DNA of 64,000 bases from Neisseria elongata subsp. elongata (GTDB lineage Bacteria > Pseudomonadota > Gammaproteobacteria > Burkholderiales > Neisseriaceae), in NCBI RefSeq assembly GCF_900113545.1, contig NZ_FOPS01000005.1:62001-126000 (forward strand). The letters run 5' to 3'. The first letter of the stretch is position 1. Each line of letters starts with the position of its first letter. The position numbers and the translations under genes were made by a program. Below are positions 7,918-15,750 of the stretch, in pieces. A model generated the notes under the pieces. It had not been told where the DNA came from. It did no database searches and was given only the letters and a program-made list of their open reading frames with translations.

Positions 7918-8391
7918 ATGATTAAAAAAGACACCGTCGTCGGCCTGCATTACGAAATGTTTGATGCCAACGACCAGCTTATCGACAAAACAGAGCAGCC
8001 GATTGTATATCTGCACGGCGGTTACGACGGTATTTTCCCTCTGGTGGAAGAAGCGTTGCATGAAAAAAACATTGGCGACGAAGTGGATGTCGTATTGCAG
8101 CCCGACGATGCTTTCGGCGAACATGACTCCGACCTCATCCGCATCGAATCTGCCGACGCTTTCCCGACCGAAGTCAAACCAGGCATGATGTTTGAAGCCG
8201 ATATGCCTGACGGCGACGTGGTGGTGTTCCGCGTAGAAGATGTGGCGGAAGGCAAAGTCGTGGTAAACGGCAACCATCCTTTGGCCGGCATGAAAATCCG
8301 TTTTAAAGCCAAAATAGAAAGCATCCGCCCGGCAACCGCAGAAGAAATCGAACACGGCCATGTTCACGGCCCGCATGGCCATCATCACTGA
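7918..8391 (+). CDS. slyD: FKBP-type peptidyl-prolyl isomerase, SlyD
   Basis: 157 residues. The N-terminal FKBP half carries a YLHGG loop; an inserted-flap domain follows, then a second FKBP segment (GNHPLAGM). The C-terminal tail is His-rich (HGHVHGPHGHHH), the metal-binding tail typical of SlyD. It acts as a cytoplasmic folding helper and nickel or zinc binder. A TACAAT -10 element lies at 7879-7884. It is the last chromosomal gene before the prophage and ends at a DUS hairpin 24 bp downstream of its stop. Confidence 0.95.
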   Translation: MIKKDTVVGLHYEMFDANDQLIDKTEQPIVYLHGGYDGIFPLVEEALHEKNIGDEVDVVLQPDDAFGEHDSDLIRIESADAFPTEVKPGMMFEADMPDGDVVVFRVEDVAEGKVVVNGNHPLAGMKIRFKAKIESIRPATAEEIEHGHVHGPHGHHH

Positions 8392-8475: not shown

Positions 8476-8480
8476 CTTTT
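8476..8480 (+). repeat. Left copy of 5-bp target duplication (CTTTT)
   Basis: CTTTT directly precedes the TGT... left end of the Mu-like element and is repeated at 15449-15453 directly after its ...ACA right end. Mu-family transposition makes 5-bp duplications, so this fixes the insertion boundaries. Confidence 0.85.
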
Positions 8481-8643
8481 TGTGGGGTGGTGTTAGTTTT
8501 GTCATAGTGGGGAATACGAAAAAAAAGGGTGAAATTTTAATAAAAACAGAAAAATAGAAGAAAAGCCGGCAAAATTTAAAAATGCAAAAAATCGCGCAAA
8601 ACTTGTCAAAGTTCTGACAGTTTCGCGCGATTTTTGTCATAGG
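8481..8643. promoter_or_regulatory. Prophage left end with transposase-site repeats
   Basis: AGTTTTGTCATAG at 8495-8507 and TTTTTGTCATAGG at 8631-8643, with a weaker AAACTTGTCAAAG at 8599-8611. The last two flank a long imperfect inverted repeat of AATCGCGC / GCGCGATT. Three sites at the left end fit the L1-L3 arrangement of Mu. Confidence 0.65.
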
Positions 8644-8667
8644 CCTATCAGAAAACAAACAAAACCA

Positions 8668-9513
8668 TCACGACGCGATACCGCAGTCCCAGAGGTACTT
8701 ACCATAAATTTCGAAGTCGTAGTCTTGGCTTTGAGATAGATCGAGGATTTCAGTCGGATAGCTGTCTTTATTGGAGCTGTCACTTACAATTCTGTATGTA
8801 TAGCGGTTTATCCTATGTAGGCGTTTAATGCGGATGTCGTCATATTGGCGGAATAGATATATTCCCTCACCTAAATAATCGGCGGTCATCTGCCAAAGCA
8901 CTGTCCCTCTATCTATAAGGGTTGGCTCCATGCTGTCGCCTTTTATACGGGAACAGAAGCATTTATCCGGCGATACGCCGAGTACATCAAAAAACGAGGC
9001 GCGAAACCACATAGCTTCGGTAATTAACTGTTCATCGAAGCGTTCACCGTGTCCTGCCCTGCCAAAGAGGTTAGTGTGGTAGCGAACAGGCACGATTGAA
9101 CTAACATCTTGACCTTCTGACCAAATGTCGTATTCATTGACCATATCCTGCATAACCAATGGAATAGCCGGCTCGTTTACACCTGATTTTCGTTTCTGAA
9201 TAGCTGTTTGATGTATCAGGTAAGCAGCAGGGGGCTCATTTATTTTTTGATTTTCAACTTTATTTTCTAAATGGGATTTTTCAAGTAATGGAATCAATCC
9301 CTTTGCCTGTAACTCTTTAATAACATCATTTGGTAGGCTATAAACAGTTTTTTGACCATTTCTACCCCCTTTTCCTTGAACTATTCTACTTTTCCATCCT
9401 TCTTTTTCGGCTCTTATTTTCACACCGCTTTTTGATGATGGGAGGTCAATATGTATCTGTTTAGCCGTTGCTTGACTTACTAAATCACATATTTCTTGTG
9501 CGCTATATTCCAT
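8668..9513 (-). CDS. Mu-like prophage repressor (Mu DNA-binding plus S24 peptidase)
   Basis: 281 residues. The first about 70 residues form the Mu-type winged-helix DNA-binding domain shared by Mu repressors and transposases (GRNGQKTVYSLP). The C-terminal half is a LexA/CI-like S24 domain with nucleophile Ser194 in GDSMEPTL and the paired Lys230 in DIRIKRL, so RecA-stimulated self-cleavage is possible. It is transcribed toward the left end, as in Mu. ATG 9511-9513 follows GAGAGG. Three 13-bp operator-like sites lie directly upstream. It is the only phage gene that looks complete in both sequence and control region, so the element could still give immunity. Confidence 0.9.
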   Translation of the reverse strand: MEYSAQEICDLVSQATAKQIHIDLPSSKSGVKIRAEKEGWKSRIVQGKGGRNGQKTVYSLPNDVIKELQAKGLIPLLEKSHLENKVENQKINEPPAAYLIHQTAIQKRKSGVNEPAIPLVMQDMVNEYDIWSEGQDVSSIVPVRYHTNLFGRAGHGERFDEQLITEAMWFRASFFDVLGVSPDKCFCSRIKGDSMEPTLIDRGTVLWQMTADYLGEGIYLFRQYDDIRIKRLHRINRYTYRIVSDSSNKDSYPTEILDLSQSQDYDFEIYGKYLWDCGIAS

Positions 9514-9531
9514 AAAAAATACCTCTCCATA

Positions 9532-9588
9532 AAGTGGACTACTTTAATTCCCAAGTAGTCCACTTTTTTATCTCAAAGTAGTACACTT
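9532..9588. promoter_or_regulatory. Three repressor operator sites
   Basis: AAGTGGACTACTT (9532-9544), AAGTAGTCCACTT (9553-9565) and AAGTAGTACACTT (9576-9588). Each is an imperfect palindrome (AAGT...ACTT). The first is the exact reverse complement of the second. Centres are 21 and 23 bp apart, two helical turns, allowing cooperative binding by the adjacent repressor on the same DNA face. An AACTTA...TAAGTT inverted repeat (9629-9648) lies further right, possibly a Ner-type site. Confidence 0.7.
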
Positions 9589-9783
9589 TATTTTAATTAA
9601 AATCATATGGTTATGTGTTTTGGTAGACAACTTAGCGTAAATTAAGTTGCGCACTTCGGTGTACTACTATACTATGTTTACAACTTCAAACGGGAACTTG
9701 TAAAGAAGTATAACTGATTTGGACTTGATCTTTAACAATTTGGAAAAAAGCCGAAAAAAGACGGGTATGCCCCGCCGCCCGAT

Positions 9784-10818
9784 GTGATGAAACAGATTCA
9801 GGCGCGGAAGCTGGAGGAGGCCTTGGGCGGACTGGCAGATTTACCCTCGCCCACGGAGATGGAAGGCAAACCCGCCGTCAGGAATGAAGAAACCCCACTC
9901 GCCCTGCCTGAAACGGTGTGTATTGTCGATGGTTCGACCGAGCAACAGCGTTTATGCGAATCATCGCGCCGTGGTGTACTGGCGGCGGTTGAGCGGGTAA
10001 TGGCCGAAGCGGGCGTATCGAAGGAGGCGGCGATTACTACTGTTTTGACTCAGGCGAAGATGCCGGGCTTCGAGCATATTGCGAAGCTGTTTTCCCTTGC
10101 GGCGGATGGGCGCGGCGGCGGCGGAAAGCTGCCGAGCGTGCGGACAATCAAGCGTTGGTTTGCAGCCCGCGAACGTAACAGCCTTGCGCCGAAAATGTCG
10201 CAGAAAGATATGAACGTACCGTCTTGGCTGCCGCTGTTTATGGAATGCTACCGTCTACCGATGAAACCGTCAGTTGCCGAAGCTTACCGTTTTTTTTTAC
10301 GGCGTCTGGAATCGGACGGGAATGAATGCCCGAGTATCCATACCGTGCGCCGCTGGTTGGACAAGGTGGGCAATGTGGAGCGTGAACGCGGACGACGCGG
10401 GGCGCGGGATTTGAAAAATATCCTGCCGCACAAACGGCGCGATTTTATGCATTTGAAACCTGCCGCTATCTACACCGCCGACGGTCATACGTTTGATGCG
10501 GAGGTGTTGAATCCGTTATCTGGGCTGCCGTTCAGACCTGAAATCACGACGGTCTTGGACGTTGGCACAAGACGGTGTATGGGCTGGAGCGTGGGGCTGG
10601 CGGAAAGCCGGTTTACCGTGCTGGAAGCTTTAAGCCACGCAAGCCGCGCGGCCATCGGTGCGCTCTGGTATGTGGACTGGGGCAAGGGCTTTGAAAACTT
10701 GATGATGACGGATGAGGCAACCGGTCTGATGGGCAGGCTGGGCATGACGATGACGCATTCGCGGGCTTATCCCCGTACGCGGTATCAAGCCGTCATCGGA
10801 CAAAATGTTGCGGATTGA
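9784..10818 (+). pseudogene. Mu-like transposase (MuA) fragment
   Basis: Middle part of a MuA-type DDE transposase. Open reading continues upstream in frame to 9736 (QFGKKPKKDGYAPPPDV...), so the listed start is inside the gene and the N-terminal end-binding domains have been deleted, as has ner. TADGH holds the first catalytic Asp and MTDEATG probably the second. The frame then reaches MTHSRAY, after which the sequence switches at about 10,770 to terminase-coding DNA, so the catalytic Glu and C-terminus are missing. The last residues of this frame read out-of-frame terminase sequence. It cannot be an active transposase. Confidence 0.85.
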
Positions 10819-11023
10819 GACCTTGCAGCCGCACATGGCAAACGGGCTGATCCTGCTCAACCCCGACCAAAAGACGCTGATTAGCCAGTTGCGCCATTTC
10901 CCGAAAGCCGATCACGACGACGGCCCCGATGCGCTGCATATGCTGTGGATGGCGGCCACCAGCGGCCGCGCAACGGAAAACATGAGGGCTTACGAAATCC
11001 CCGTTGTGCCCTTTACCATCTAA
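10805..11023 (+). pseudogene. Terminase large subunit (Mu gp28-like), C-terminal fragment
   Basis: Reads RIETLQPHMANGLILL...DHDDGPDALHMLW, the C-terminal end of Mu-like terminase large subunits, where DGPDAL belongs to the nuclease-end region. In-frame homologous sequence starts at about 10,775 (GIKPSSDKM) right at the junction with the transposase fragment. The ATPase and most of the nuclease are absent. Frame differs from the transposase fragment, so no fusion protein forms. Confidence 0.75.
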
Positions 11024-11029
11024 TTTGTC

Positions 11030-11058
11030 AGGCCGTCTGAAAAGGTTTCGGACGGCCT
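11030..11058. terminator. DUS hairpin inside the prophage
   Basis: AGGCCGTCTGAA (11030-11041) faces TTCGGACGGCCT (11047-11058), one base off a perfect AG-DUS. It lies between the terminase and portal genes and just before the portal ribosome site. An uptake sequence inside phage DNA shows long adaptation to neisserial hosts. Confidence 0.65.
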
Positions 11059-11070
11059 GAGGAGTAAAAA

Positions 11071-12213
11071 ATGTTCGGATTGATTAAAGGTAAAAAACGT
11101 CAGGCCGCCGTCAAACACCTGACCGCGGCCACCGAAGACGCACTGTCGAATATGTTTGCCGATATGACGGGCAACGACACCCTGCTTGCCCGCCTCGGCG
11201 TGGGCAGGCAGCACGCCTTCGATGTGGTTTACGCCGACGATGAGGTGGCCGCCTGCACCGAAGACCTGCGCGCCGCCATGCTGGCCAAACCGTGGCGGCT
11301 GTACGGCGACGGCCTGTCCGAAGAGGACAAAGACCGCCTGTGGAAAATGCTGCGGCAACATATGGCCGCACTGGCGGAATCAGTCATCGATGCGCGCCTC
11401 AACGGTTACAGCGTGGCACGCTACGTCTACGCGCAGGGCGACGACGGCATCCGCATCGCCAACGTATCAAGTAAACGGGGCGAGTTGGAACGTTTCGTCC
11501 CCTACCGCGACGGCAGCCTGATGTACCGAGGCACGGCGGGCGAAGAGGTGTGCGACACCAATGTGATGTACCTGTTTCTGACCCACCGCGCCACCTCGAC
11601 CAACCCGGCCGGGGAAATGGCGGCCGCGCGGCTGTACGCCCCCGTCGCCTTGCGCAGCAAAGGCTTCGTCTTTGCCGCCCAATTCATCACCCGCTACGCC
11701 CAGCCCTATATGGTGGCCAAAATCAACGCCGGTACGGACGAGGAGCACCGCGGCTTCATGCGGCGGTTTATCGACTTTCTCGGCGGCGGCGCAGTCAGCA
11801 TCGAGCGCGAGGACGATGTGAAGATGCTGCAAAACACCGCAGACGGCCAGGCCTTCAAACGGCTGGAAAACCTCGCCAACGCCCGCATCCAAAAAACCCT
11901 GCTGGGCAAGGTCAAGACCAGCGACCTTGAGACCGGCAGCCGCGCCGCGCAGGAAACCGAAGAAAACAACCGTGCCGAACGCATCGCCTCCTATCTGGTC
12001 ATGCTCTCCCGTGCCGCCCAGCATTTCGTCGACGCCGCCGTCATGGTCAACAATGCCTACGGCAGGCCGATTCATGCACCGAAAGGCGTGTGGTTCGAGT
12101 TTGACGACGAAGTGCGGATAGACAAAACCCGTGCCGAGCGCGACAAAATGTACCTTGACGCCGGGCAGCTGGTATTGACCGAAGAATACTACCGCGACGT
12201 GCTGGGCTTTTAG
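11071..12213 (+). pseudogene. Mu gp29-like portal protein (DUF935), C-terminally truncated
   Basis: 380 residues from ATG 11071, well placed after GAGGAG. Sequence is that of the DUF935/Mu gp29 portal family (DVVYADDEVAACTEDLRAAMLAKPWRLYGDG...; KGVWFEFDDEVRIDKTRAERDKMYLDAG). Family members are about 510-520 residues, so roughly the last quarter is missing: after YYRDVLGF the reading meets a stop created at the junction with tape-measure DNA. It may be translated but would not make a working portal. Confidence 0.8.
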
Positions 12214-12511
12214 GCATTAAAACCGACCAAGCGCGCTCGGAGCTGGCCAAGGTCAAACAATCCTATGCCGAACTGAAGGCAAGCGGCACGCTGACCAAAC
12301 GCGAATTGAAACAGGCAACCGCCGCCTATACGGCCAGAGTGCGCGAACTGAAGGCCGAATTGAAAGGCGTGCCGTCCAAACTCAACCCTATTGCCGCCTC
12401 CGTGCGCGGCATGGGTGGGGCAATGCTGGGCGTGGCGGGTGTGGGCGGCGGCCTGTATGCCATTAAAGAGGGTTTACAGCAGGTCGTGCAGGCGACGGCG
12501 GAATATGCCGC
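12213..12511 (+). pseudogene. Tape-measure protein fragment (N-proximal part)
   Basis: In the frame starting GIKTDQARSELAKVKQSYAE the sequence reads as a coiled-coil tape-measure protein, then a membrane-like Gly/Ala stretch (GGAMLGVAGVGGGLYAIKEG). The frame has no start codon of its own and runs out of sense at about 12,510, where the tape-measure reading continues in another frame (DAGIVADETAAKVGN). A deletion with frame change, or a frameshift, separates it from the next fragment. Confidence 0.65.
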
Positions 12512-12535
12512 CAGCCGCTGCGCGATGCCGGCATC

Positions 12536-14407
12536 GTGGCGGACGAAACGGCGGCCAAGGTCGGCAACATCGGCGGCGAGGCGCAGAAAGCCGCGCAGGC
12601 GGTGGAGGCCGCGTTCGCCAAAATCGGCGTGGACGTGGGGCAGGTAACGGACGGCATCATCACCGCCGCCCAATACGACCAGGCCGTCGCACAGGTCAAG
12701 GTGCGGACGGACGAACTGGCCGCCGCCTCCGCCGCCGTCGGGCAGCAGGCCGAAACGGGCTACGCGCAGGCATCGCAGGCCGCCGAACGCTACGGCCATA
12801 CAGTCAGGCAGGCCGCCGACGGCCACAAAGAGGTCGGCCATGCGGCGCAGGCATCCGCCCAAACGGCGGGCGGCGCGTGGGGCAAGATGACCGTCAACGT
12901 CCACGACTACCTGAGCATGACGCGCGAACAAATCCGGGCGATGGGCGACGCGATGAAAACCCTCACCCCTTTGGGCAGCATCGGCACGGCGGGAATCAAC
13001 GGCGGCTTTAAAGAGTGGGCGGCAAGGGTTAAAACCTTCAAAGACGGCGTCAGGGAGGCGGAGGCGGCAACCGAGGCACTCAACCGCGCCGTATCGGACG
13101 GCACGGTGAATATGGAGATGATTAACCGTGCCACCGCCGCCGCCACCTTGCAATTCGGGCGGCTGGACGATGCCACGTTGGACAAACTCAATGCCGCCGT
13201 TGCCGCCGCCCGCGACAAAATGGCCGCCCTCAAAGACGAAGCGGCCGATACCGTGGCCCAACTGCAAACCGAGCTGGCCCGGTTGCGCGGCGACGGCGAA
13301 CAGGCCAGGCGGCTGGAAGAAGAGCGCAAACTGCGCGAATTGAACGTGAAGCTGGCCGAAGCCGAAGCGCAGGGCAACAGCGAGGCCGCCGCCCGATACC
13401 GGCAGGCCGTCTCCCTGCAGCGGCAGATTTACCGCGAACGCGCCGAGCAGGAAGAGCAGGCCGAAAAGGCGCGGGCGGAAAACCCGCAGGCCGGCCTTGC
13501 CGCCGCCTTCGAGGCCGCGCCGCCGCAAATCGGCATCCCGCTGTCCGACCTGCAACGCCTGATTGAGGCGCGGGACAAACGGGTGCCCGTCTTCCGCAAG
13601 GGCGACATGATCGTCATCGGCAACCGCCTCAAACAGGATTTGGGCGGCAGCTTCACGGGCGGCCAAACCGTCGCCCTCGCGCGGCAGAACCTTGACCGCG
13701 CCTGCCTGCTGGACGCGCAGGGCAAACACGTTTCGGCGGAAAAATACAGCATCGATTTGGCGGCGGGCAAACTGACCTTTGCCGAGCCGTTGAGCCTCGC
13801 AGGCCACACCCTGCCGCTGACCGCCGTCCTCGCGTGGGAGGAGGAAAACCGCATCACGGCCGCCGACGTTTCAGGCCGTCTGAAACTGCAAACCCCGCTG
13901 ACCCGCGACTACCCGCAGGAAGGCACATATGTTTCCTCCGCCCTGGTCGGCGGCGACCTGCTGGTACGCGCCACCGAACCGTTTGCACAAAAAACATGGG
14001 ACGGCGTGTGGGCGGAGGCGGTGCGCGGCGACCCGATACTGGCCCGCCTCAATACCGCCAACTACCCGATGGCACTGAAAAGTAACGGCGCGGTAACCGA
14101 ACGCTGGCTGATCCGCTTCACGGGCGAGAACACCTACCAACTGTACGGCGAGACGCTGGGGCTGGTGGTGCAGGGCGACACCGTTACCGACCTCGCCCCG
14201 CCGAACCCCGCCACCGGCAAACCCTATTTCACCTTACCGGCGGCCGCGTTCGGCGGCGGCTGGTCGGCGGGCAACTGCATCCGCTTCAACACCTACGGCA
14301 CGCCGATGCCGGTGTGGATATTGAGGAGCGTGCAGCCCTCCGCCGCACGGCAAACGGAAAAAGACGGCTTTACCGCCTGCCTGCGCGGCAACACCGTGGC
14401 CGAATAA
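12536..14407 (+). CDS. Chimeric phage ORF: tape-measure segment plus tail-associated C-terminal part
   Basis: 623 residues. Roughly residues 1-320 are tape-measure-like: Ala/Gln/Lys-rich coiled coil with phage-type repeats. From about residue 325 (IPLSDLQRLIEARDKRVPVF) the composition changes to a compact beta-rich protein ending in KDGFTACLRGNTVAE. I think the two parts were joined in frame by a deletion near 13,490-13,540, but a natural join cannot be excluded. The GTG start at 12536 is arbitrary because the true N-terminus is lost; an AG-DUS (13873-13884) sits in the coding sequence. Function improbable. Confidence 0.55.
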   Translation: MADETAAKVGNIGGEAQKAAQAVEAAFAKIGVDVGQVTDGIITAAQYDQAVAQVKVRTDELAAASAAVGQQAETGYAQASQAAERYGHTVRQAADGHKEVGHAAQASAQTAGGAWGKMTVNVHDYLSMTREQIRAMGDAMKTLTPLGSIGTAGINGGFKEWAARVKTFKDGVREAEAATEALNRAVSDGTVNMEMINRATAAATLQFGRLDDATLDKLNAAVAAARDKMAALKDEAADTVAQLQTELARLRGDGEQARRLEEERKLRELNVKLAEAEAQGNSEAAARYRQAVSLQRQIYRERAEQEEQAEKARAENPQAGLAAAFEAAPPQIGIPLSDLQRLIEARDKRVPVFRKGDMIVIGNRLKQDLGGSFTGGQTVALARQNLDRACLLDAQGKHVSAEKYSIDLAAGKLTFAEPLSLAGHTLPLTAVLAWEEENRITAADVSGRLKLQTPLTRDYPQEGTYVSSALVGGDLLVRATEPFAQKTWDGVWAEAVRGDPILARLNTANYPMALKSNGAVTERWLIRFTGENTYQLYGETLGLVVQGDTVTDLAPPNPATGKPYFTLPAAAFGGGWSAGNCIRFNTYGTPMPVWILRSVQPSAARQTEKDGFTACLRGNTVAE

Positions 14408-14427
14408 CATTTCGAAAGGAAAAAATC

Positions 14428-15276
14428 ATGTTTCAAACCGAACGCGTGCCCGTCACCGTCTACCGCTCCACCGACGAGGGCGCGCCGCAGCTTTCCGCCG
14501 CCGCCGGCAGCCTGAAGACCGTTTTAAAAGCCTGCCTGACCAACGGCTACGGCACAAAACAGCCGCTGGGCTGGGAAATGCAGTATGAAGACGGCCACGC
14601 CGCCTGCTGGCGCAGCAAGCACAACCGCGCCACGGGGGCGGTACTTTCCCTTGACGACAAGGGCGGATACGGCCTGATGCAGGTGTTTCAGACGTCCTCC
14701 TCCGCCACGGCGGGCGACAAGCCGCTCATCAGGTACGATTCCGGCTACGACAAGTTCTCCTATTACTCCCGTAACGCAGCCAACGCCTGGGTATTGGTCG
14801 GCCATGCGCGCGGATTCGTCCTCATCCTGCCGACCGACAAGAACGCGCTTGTCCCATTCCTTATCTTCGGCGACTACGCGGGATTGGGCGTGTCGCATCA
14901 GGAAAATGTTTTTGTTGCGGGCATATTTTCCAATGGCACAGAATACAACTCCTCGAGTAAAGGAATCCGTTACTTTACTTACGATTATCTGGCCGTCAAA
15001 AAAAGCATCGACGTGAGCATGGTGTCGCTGGCCGATACCTATGGCGGCAAATACCCGTCTCCCGTCGCCAACGGCTTCTCGGCCTCGGAAATCTACCTTA
15101 CCGAGGGCAGGGCGGGAAAAGACACACCCCTGCGCGGCCTGCTGCCGGGCATCCTCCGTATTGCCGAGGAAATGCCCGATTTCACCGCCGTCCCCGTCGG
15201 CACGGTTTATGACAACCTCGACGCATCGGGCGATGCCTACCTGGCCTTTAGTGCAAACAGCACATGCGACTCTTAA
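14428..15276 (+). CDS. Phage tail-associated protein of unknown function
   Basis: 282 residues from ATG 14428, chosen for the strong AAAGGA site at 14415-14420; a longer open frame upstream overlaps the previous gene. I recognise no domain; the beta-rich, Gly/Ser-rich composition and position at the right of a Mu-like genome suggest a tail, fibre or host-contact protein. It is the last phage gene before the right end and appears intact at the start; the C-terminal SANSTCDS could be natural or a deletion scar. A hairpin follows it. Confidence 0.6.
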   Translation: MFQTERVPVTVYRSTDEGAPQLSAAAGSLKTVLKACLTNGYGTKQPLGWEMQYEDGHAACWRSKHNRATGAVLSLDDKGGYGLMQVFQTSSSATAGDKPLIRYDSGYDKFSYYSRNAANAWVLVGHARGFVLILPTDKNALVPFLIFGDYAGLGVSHQENVFVAGIFSNGTEYNSSSKGIRYFTYDYLAVKKSIDVSMVSLADTYGGKYPSPVANGFSASEIYLTEGRAGKDTPLRGLLPGILRIAEEMPDFTAVPVGTVYDNLDASGDAYLAFSANSTCDS

Positions 15277-15287
15277 AGGTATAAGAT

Positions 15288-15320
15288 AATCCCCATTTAA
15301 CAGACCATTAAACGGGGATA
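15288..15320 (+). terminator. Terminator-like hairpin after the last phage gene
   Basis: ATCCCC (15289-15294) pairs with GGGGAT (15314-15319), extended by TTTAA/TTAAA, 12 bases after the stop codon. Followed by AAATTTG, so only a weak T tail. Confidence 0.4.
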
Positions 15321-15360
15321 AATTTGGGCAAAAGCTGATGGGTGAGTTAAAATTTTCGCA

Positions 15361-15448
15361 ACTTTTGTCATAGATTCTGTGCGCGACTTTTGTCACAGCC
15401 TATGACAAAACAAATGCAAAACTATGACAAAACTCGCGCGACCTTACA
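15361..15448. promoter_or_regulatory. Prophage right end with four transposase-site repeats
   Basis: ACTTTTGTCATAG (15361-15373) and ACTTTTGTCACAG (15386-15398) in one direction; CTATGACAAAAC (15400-15411) and CTATGACAAAACT (15422-15434) in the other. The outermost copy stands at the same distance from the CA end as its partner on the left end. Confidence 0.7.
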
Positions 15449-15453
15449 CTTTT
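15449..15453 (+). repeat. Right copy of 5-bp target duplication (CTTTT)
   Basis: Directly follows the TTACA right terminus; identical to 8476-8480. Confidence 0.85.
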
Positions 15454-15493
15454 CAGGCCTTTTTTCCTGCCGAACCGGACTTCACCGTACACA

Positions 15494-15600
15494 TATAGTG
15501 GATTAAATTTAAAACAGTACGGCGTTGCCTCGCCTTGCCGTACTATTTGTACTGTCTGCGGCTTCGTCGCCTTGTCCTGATTTAAATTTAATCCACTATA
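15494..15600. mobile_element. Correia repeat-enclosed element (short form)
   Basis: 107 bp with 20-bp terminal inverted repeats beginning TATAGTGGATTAAATTT at both ends and the conserved core GGCGTTGCCTCGCCTTGCCG ... CTGCGGCTTCGTCGCCTTG. This is the short internally deleted form of the neisserial Correia/NEMIS element, a MITE that inserts at TA and can carry promoters or RNase III sites. It lies 45 bp outside the prophage. The rest of the 15,454-15,750 gap has no gene that I can support. Confidence 0.9.
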
Positions 15601-15750
15601 ATTGTGCTTTCCCGCTTTCTTCTATCCGACCTTGGGCAAGCGGCAGGCCCGCAAAACAACAGCCGGTTTCAAAAAATCCTGCTTAAACAATCCTGAACGG
15701 TATCAATCGCATCAAATTCGGCTTGCGGTTTTTATGCGTTTATTCATTGC

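What the first reader, a model, noticed from the sequence alone, without database searches (positions are those of the whole stretch)
8476..15453. Mini-Mu-like prophage remnant with exact ends, target duplication and an intact repressor
Both termini (TG at 8481, CA at 15448), a 5-bp CTTTT duplication and matching AGTTTTGTCATAG sites at equal distance from each end are visible. Almost all lytic genes are deleted or cut, but the ends, the repressor and three operators survive. Such an element could not move by itself, yet could give immunity to related Mu-like phages and could be moved in trans by a related transposase. Retention of just these parts suggests selection rather than random decay.
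Basis: partly seen in the sequence, partly recalled or inferred. Interest (0 to 1): 0.75.

Follow-up and report, generated by a model that had tools for sequence, protein, structure and literature searches.

The report
Decayed Mu-like prophage with intact repressor
This is the shrunken leftover of a jumping (Mu-like) bacterial virus in a Neisseria chromosome, with its ends, target duplication and repressor gene still readable; the same genome holds two more such leftovers, and the pattern looks like recent loss by deletion rather than proven retention by selection.

Summary
Window 8481-15448 (6,968 bp) is flanked by CTTTT, has matched terminal sites and an open 281-aa repressor gene; the other phage genes in it are cut. 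A full-length relative in another Neisseria genome (G045, 41,273 bp, duplication TCCGC) ends at the corresponding bases; the window element is colinear with it but lacks about 34 kb. New here: the same genome carries two more elements with the same ends, their own 5-bp duplications and open repressor genes (3,230 and 3,544 bp). The repressors are 52-53% identical to the window's and the presumed operators differ, so three immunity types are likely. Selection is not supported: phage-gene fragments that cannot work alone (2,273 codons) hold one stop, so an open repressor is expected in remnants this young. No second copy of the element and no intact transposase of this type were found in this genome. 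Best reading: a defective Mu-like prophage, recently shrunk by internal deletions, whose repressor probably still works and may give narrow homoimmunity. New member of a known kind.

The parts
8476..8480 (.). left copy of the 5-bp target duplication CTTTT
   Evidence: read directly
8481..8660 (+). left end: TGTGGGG..., terminal site 8495-8507, inverted partial site 8582-8603, second site 8630-8642; presumed transposase-binding array
   Evidence: aligned with E2, E3, G045, G025, G065, G082
8668..9513 (-). repressor gene, 281 aa, open; Mu-type DNA-binding domain and S24 peptidase domain
9531..9589 (.). three presumed operators AAAGTAGTMCACTTT (9531-9545 -, 9552-9566 +, 9575-9589 +)
   Evidence: function inferred
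9727..9744 (+). boxA-like leader sequence GATCTTTAACAATTTGGA
9742..10770 (+). transposase (MuA-type) fragment, residues 44-378 of 712 of the G045 protein
10769..11014 (+). terminase fragment, residues 460-541 of 542
11071..12210 (+). portal protein fragment, residues 1-376 of 474
12210..13432 (+). two pieces of a 1413-aa protein (tape measure by PHROG match), residues 179-247 and 1067-1326, 36% identity
13574..14404 (+). C-terminal fragment, residues 903-1179 of a 1180-aa protein (PHROG families of unknown function)
14428..15258 (+). residues 1-298 of a 316-aa protein (PHROG tail assembly), nearly whole, last residues replaced
15263..15448 (-). right end with sites 15361-15373 (+), 15388-15398 (+), 15400-15412 (-), 15422-15434 (-), ending ...CCTTACA
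   Evidence: 15263 boundary from the 94% match to E2; aligned
15449..15453 (.). right copy of the target duplication CTTTT
   Evidence: read directly

Best explanation
A Mu-like phage of the type found whole in genome G045 transposed into the space behind the gene at 7918-8391 and made the CTTTT duplication (ends and duplication shown; transposition inferred from them). About 34 kb was then lost in roughly six internal deletions that removed or cut the early, replication, head and tail genes (the missing parts are shown by comparison with G045; order, number and timing are inferred, because G045 is a relative and not the ancestor). While lytic genes still worked, loss of the repressor would have released lethal phage growth, so it could only be lost after them (inferred), and too little time has passed for point mutations to break it (inferred; supported by nearly stop-free fragments). 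The repressor gene, presumed operators and promoter region look whole, so it probably still binds its operators and would shut off an infecting phage of the same immunity type, a narrow homoimmunity as by-product (inferred). It cannot move by itself (shown by the truncated transposase).
For: Ends, matched sites and duplication. Full-length relative with the same ends and its own 5-bp duplication; 25 identical first letters. Colinear matches to 7 of the 53 ORFs called in G045. Two more elements of the same make in this genome, with duplications ACAGG and AAACG. Fragments that cannot work alone: 1,687 codons in this element with 0 stops, 408 in E2 with 0, 178 in E3 with 1; the three repressors together give 831 matched codons, so about 0.4 stops would be expected without any selection. 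Transposase fragments of E1 and E2 differ with dN 0.020 and dS 0.102 over 228 codons, which fits recent loss of function. A 5-bp duplication is what Mu makes (PMC8705779, passage).
Against: Three of three elements in this genome keep an open repressor, which selection would also predict. The stop count uses tblastn segments, which may end at a stop or frameshift, so it leans low. No empty site was found for this element and no second strain was available, so timing is not measured. Repressor activity is untested.
Confidence: 0.82

Rival explanations
1. Domesticated immunity cassette: the host keeps repressor and operators because they protect it against related Mu-like phages; the three elements form a small set of different immunities.
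For: Open repressor in 3 of 3 elements here, each with its own presumed operator type. Of 9 elements with broken or missing transposase that I examined in the family, 7 keep an open repressor-like gene. Reuse of mobile elements for defence is a known theme (PMC8987985, passages).
Against: Neighbouring useless fragments are just as open. Order of loss predicts the same pattern. G054 keeps the left end but its repressor has lost the N-terminal part. No phage with the E1 operator pair was found in IMG/VR.
Confidence: 0.08
2. Non-autonomous element moved in trans (a natural mini-Mu): the retained ends let a related phage's transposase move it.
For: Both ends keep their site arrays; ends of E1, E2, E3 and G045 are nearly the same, 25-26 of the first 27 letters.
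Against: The three elements carry different deletions, so none is a copy of another. The own-genome search with the whole element found no second copy. No intact transposase of this type in this genome: its two other long family hits are TnsB-like genes beside TnsA, TniB and TniQ. No such short element was seen in the other 45 genomes of the genus with the left 1 kb as query (divergent copies could be missed).
Confidence: 0.05
3. The ends are what is kept: they repel new Mu-like insertions nearby (transposition or cis immunity).
For: Both end arrays are kept. Cis immunity next to Mu ends is described for phage Mu (abstracts of PMC2837660 and PMC7350765, seen in the listing).
Against: Ends are also what lets the insertion be recognised, so their presence is partly a matter of how it was found.
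Confidence: 0.03

Closest known systems
Full-length Mu-like prophage of genome G045 (C1:143419-184691), unnamed species of the same genus
   Same: same end sequences, 5-bp duplication, gene order; repressor about 50% identical, transposase fragment 64% identical
   Different: G045 is 41 kb with a long open transposase; the window element is 6,968 bp with all matched lytic genes cut
Neisserial Mu-like prophages Pnm1, Pnm2 and MuMenB
   Same: Mu-like prophages of Neisseria, of which Pnm2 and MuMenB are called defective (PMC9238386, passages)
   Different: sequence not compared here; in PMC9238386 the true boundaries of predicted prophages are said to be unknown, whereas here ends and duplication are exact
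Mini-Mu and mini-D3112 derivatives
   Same: two phage ends around a short middle without lytic functions
   Different: described as engineered (PMC8705779, passage); here natural, with no evidence of movement
Grounded or degenerate prophages
   Same: loss of most phage genes with a few left (PMC6379469, passages)
   Different: here both ends and the target duplication are exact, so the original insertion is fully delimited

Membership tests
Mu-like transposable prophage (defective member) | TG...CA ends with internal transposase-binding-like sites | tested here: met
   binding itself not tested
Mu-like transposable prophage (defective member) | 5-bp target duplication | tested here: met
   CTTTT on both sides; also ACAGG, AAACG and TCCGC for E2, E3 and G045
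Mu-like transposable prophage (defective member) | MuA-type transposase gene and Mu-type gene order | tested here: met
   as fragments in the same order as G045; transposase truncated
Mu-like transposable prophage (defective member) | able to transpose and make particles | tested here: not met
   transposase covers 335 of 712 residues and head and tail genes are cut; hence filed only as a defective member
Natural mini-Mu moved in trans | same short element at more than one site | tested here: not met
   one copy in this genome; E1, E2, E3 differ in their deletions
Domesticated immunity cassette | repressor under purifying selection after the phage died | tested here: inconclusive
   open repressor, but dead fragments are equally free of stops; no second strain held
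Domesticated immunity cassette | repressor blocks a related phage | not testable with these tools
   needs a binding or infection assay; no phage with the same operator pair found in IMG/VR

The most novel reading that the evidence does not exclude
This genome carries a set of three shrunken Mu-like elements that the host keeps as immunity cassettes: each holds exact ends, a repressor and its own operator type, so together they block three classes of Mu-like phage, and their ends may in addition repel new insertions nearby.
Probability: 0.08. Interest if true: 0.6.

Novelty: new member of a known kind. Interest (0 to 1): 0.3.

Why it matters
It gives a fully delimited example of how a transposable prophage shrinks: three decayed elements in one genome and one full-length relative, with nearly the same ends. 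It supplies a simple control for the common argument that an intact repressor in a remnant means selection: here the useless neighbouring fragments are about as intact. If strain-level data later showed the repressors outliving the fragments, the set would become a good test of whether hosts keep prophage repressors for immunity.

Tried and rejected
Other copies and other phages. An 18-base left-end pattern in IMG/VR gave 2 contigs that share only about 19 bases with the elements. The phage collection gave 30 records, 20 listed, the listed ones matching about 2% of the element, at the terminase where annotated. The E1 operator pair had no exact match in IMG/VR. A genus-wide end pattern was miscounted by one position and carries no information.

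Empty site of the window element. The left neighbour (7918-8391; I read it as SlyD/FKBP-like, but Pfam gave no family at 1e-4) is found in 45 of 46 genomes of the genus, and the right-hand NUDIX gene in 45 of 46 (this genome included). In the ten relatives whose region behind the left neighbour I compared, the right flank did not follow it, so no empty site could be read. For E3, three of five relatives compared (G018, G023, G026) carry the right border AAACGGYATCAGCC without the element; G021 and G007 differ there, and the left half is unrelated in these. For E2 no empty site was readable in seven relatives.

Intact Mu-like phage in the same genome. The two long transposase-family hits (C7:29313, C10:165861) are rejected as Mu: beside them lie genes with TnsA, TniB and TniQ matches. 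Weak hits in this genome (C9:72039, C10:335331) were not followed; C4:71232 and C10:16843 are the repressors of E1 and E2. A search of this genome with 20 kb of the G045 prophage found the window element, E3 and short repeat matches.

Survey of broken-transposase elements: 9 whose repressor could be sought (E1, E2, E3, G065, G054, G023, G027, G020, G019). Open repressor-like gene in 7: E1, E2, E3 and G065 (same repressor family), and G023, G027, G020 (other HTH plus S24 repressors). Not in G054 (N-terminal part missing; the sequence before it reads to me like the tail of an IS transposase) and unclear in G019 (125-aa HTH protein without S24). Dropped before the count: G010:C3 and G041 (transposase essentially open, 692 and 592 aa), G010:C33 and G005:C5 (at or near a contig edge), G005:C2 (TnsA-like gene beside it by my reading), and the weaker hits. 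A single stop or frameshift could be a sequencing error.

The stop-codon control uses tblastn segments, which can end at a stop or frameshift, so the count leans low; ORFs of 344, 380, 623 and 320 aa agree with it. The last fragment (298 of 316 residues) is nearly a whole gene. The two open genes of E2 and E3 (Ner-like, adenine methylase) were left out of the count.

Odds of the best explanation and of the movement rival were not given in the draft in readable form and are first stated here.
Full report
What is there. Window 8481-15448 (6,968 bp, called E1 here) starts TGTGGGGTGG and ends CCTTACA, with CTTTT on both sides. The 13-mer AGTTTTGTCATAG lies 14 bp inside each end in opposite orientation; all 5 matches with up to one mismatch in the 64 kb lie in the two end regions, against 0.04 expected. 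The shorter core has two sites on the left and four on the right, plus one stray match elsewhere, and there is an inverted partial site on the left. A 281-aa gene on the minus strand at 8668-9513 matches a Mu DNA-binding domain and an S24 peptidase domain. Between it and the remains of the early genes are three copies of AAAGTAGTMCACTTT; that they are operators is inferred from place and symmetry.

The full-length relative. A search of 46 genomes of the genus (this one included) with the left 1 kb matched three: this genome, G045 and, in part, G025. In G045 the match opens a prophage of 41,273 bp, C1:143419-184691, with TCCGC on both sides; its first 25 letters equal those of the window element and its right end reads GCGCGCCCTTACA. 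It has a long open transposase (715-aa frame, 712 aa).

Map of the losses. With 53 ORFs called in the G045 prophage, the window element matches 7, in the same order: repressor (residues 20-305 of 306), transposase (44-378 of 712), terminase (460-541 of 542), portal (1-376 of 474), a 1413-aa protein (179-247 and 1067-1326; tape measure by the PHROG match), an 1180-aa protein (903-1179) and a 316-aa protein (1-298). I infer about six deletions and some 34 kb lost. Joints are approximate and some gaps may be older differences in gene content, because identity to G045 is moderate (36-71% in these matches).

Two more elements in the same genome. E2 (contig C10, 14585-17814, 3,230 bp, duplication ACAGG) and E3 (contig C8, 113954-117497, 3,544 bp, duplication AAACG) have nearly the same ends. 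E2 keeps its repressor (272 aa), an open Ner-like gene (106 aa, HTH_35), the first 277 residues of the transposase and the end of an adenine methylase gene. E3 keeps its repressor (270 aa), an adenine methylase gene matching 275 of 276 residues, and pieces of two others. The two repressors are 53% and 52% identical to that of the window. The regions between repressor and early genes carry different repeats: AAAGTAGTMCACTTT in E1, AATTTCCAAG in E2 and AGTTGCGAA-type repeats in E3. I infer three immunity types. A search with 20 kb of the G045 prophage showed no further element in this genome.

Is selection needed? All three elements keep an open repressor. The control lies in the same elements: fragments that cannot work alone add up to 1,687 codons in E1 with no stop, 408 in E2 with none and 178 in E3 with one. 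At that rate (1 in 2,273) the three repressors, 831 matched codons, would be expected to hold about 0.4 stops without any selection. The count leans low, because matched segments can end at a stop. The transposase fragments of E1 and E2 differ with dN 0.020 and dS 0.102 over 228 codons, as expected if most of their divergence arose while the gene still worked. The remnants are young, so an open repressor says little. Order of loss gives the same bias, since a lysogen that loses the repressor first is killed (established knowledge of temperate phages). Of nine elements with broken or missing transposase that I examined, seven keep an open repressor-like gene; selection and order of loss both predict this.

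Can it move? The transposase fragment covers 335 of 712 residues. The other two long transposase-family genes of this genome lie beside TnsA, TniB and TniQ genes and belong to Tn7-like elements. E1, E2 and E3 carry different deletions, so none is a copy of another. Movement in trans is possible in principle and without evidence.

Borders. For E3, three of five relatives carry the right-border sequence AAACGGYATCAGCC without the element. For the window element the flanking genes were not found side by side in the ten relatives compared, so no empty site could be read.

A side result. The five early leaders compared (E1, E2, E3, G045, G025) share TCTTTAACAATTTGG; four of them then have a hairpin, in three built on the letters GCCGTCTGAA (the DNA-uptake sequence, named from my own knowledge), and the window element has lost that part. 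In this genome GCTCTTTAACAATTTGGA with up to two mismatches occurs four times: in the three elements and between the spacer tRNA genes and 23S rRNA. It looks like the ribosomal boxA antitermination signal; that name is also from my own knowledge. One paper held all of boxA, antitermination, Mu-like and phage (listing only).

Literature. Neisserial Mu-like prophages are well known, and Pnm2 and MuMenB are described as defective (PMC9238386, passages). Mini-Mu derivatives are described as engineered, and a 5-bp duplication as the mark of Mu (PMC8705779, passages). Decay and reuse of prophages are reviewed in PMC6379469 and PMC8987985 (passages). PMC12637031 (passages) treats deletion of prophages through transformation; that this could be a route in a competent genus such as Neisseria is my inference. 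The entries listed by searches for natural mini-Mu elements or transposable-phage satellites showed none by title and abstract; of these I read passages of PMC8705779, PMC6379469, PMC12637031 and PMC8987985 only. The original MuMenB paper was not held.

Verdict. Observation confirmed; prophage-remnant reading confirmed; selection not supported; movement in trans not supported. Ordinary in kind, with a neat triple set and a useful control.

Noticed in passing
window 9727-9744; elements E2 (L009) and E3 (L010); L151; L154: The early leaders of these Mu-like elements share TCTTTAACAATTTGG, like the boxA-type sequence in this genome's 16S-23S spacer; in four of five it is followed by a hairpin. 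It may be an antitermination signal for the early operon.
   Followed up: partly
window 15489-15605; L009 from about 9842: A Correia-type repeat (name from recall; IR TATAGTGGATTAAATTTAAA) lies within about 50 bp of one end of E1 and of E2; one search lists several dozen copies of it in the genome.
   Followed up: no
L156 8469-12931; L159 13793-18280 (contigs C7 and C10 of the same genome): Two different Tn7-like gene clusters with TnsA, TnsB-like, TniB and TniQ genes.
   Followed up: partly
L165 5152-7900: In genome G065 a related remnant with left end, open repressor (271 aa) and Ner-like gene is cut in the transposase by an IS1-type insertion; no right end was seen.
   Followed up: partly
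L010 8486-9340 (element E3): E3 keeps an open 284-aa adenine methylase gene next to a broken cytosine methylase gene.
   Followed up: no
L050 10960-11126: A MAG contig labelled Kordiimonadaceae carries a repressor of this family and a left end of this type as a palindrome around an NN gap, probably an assembly or binning artefact.
   Followed up: no
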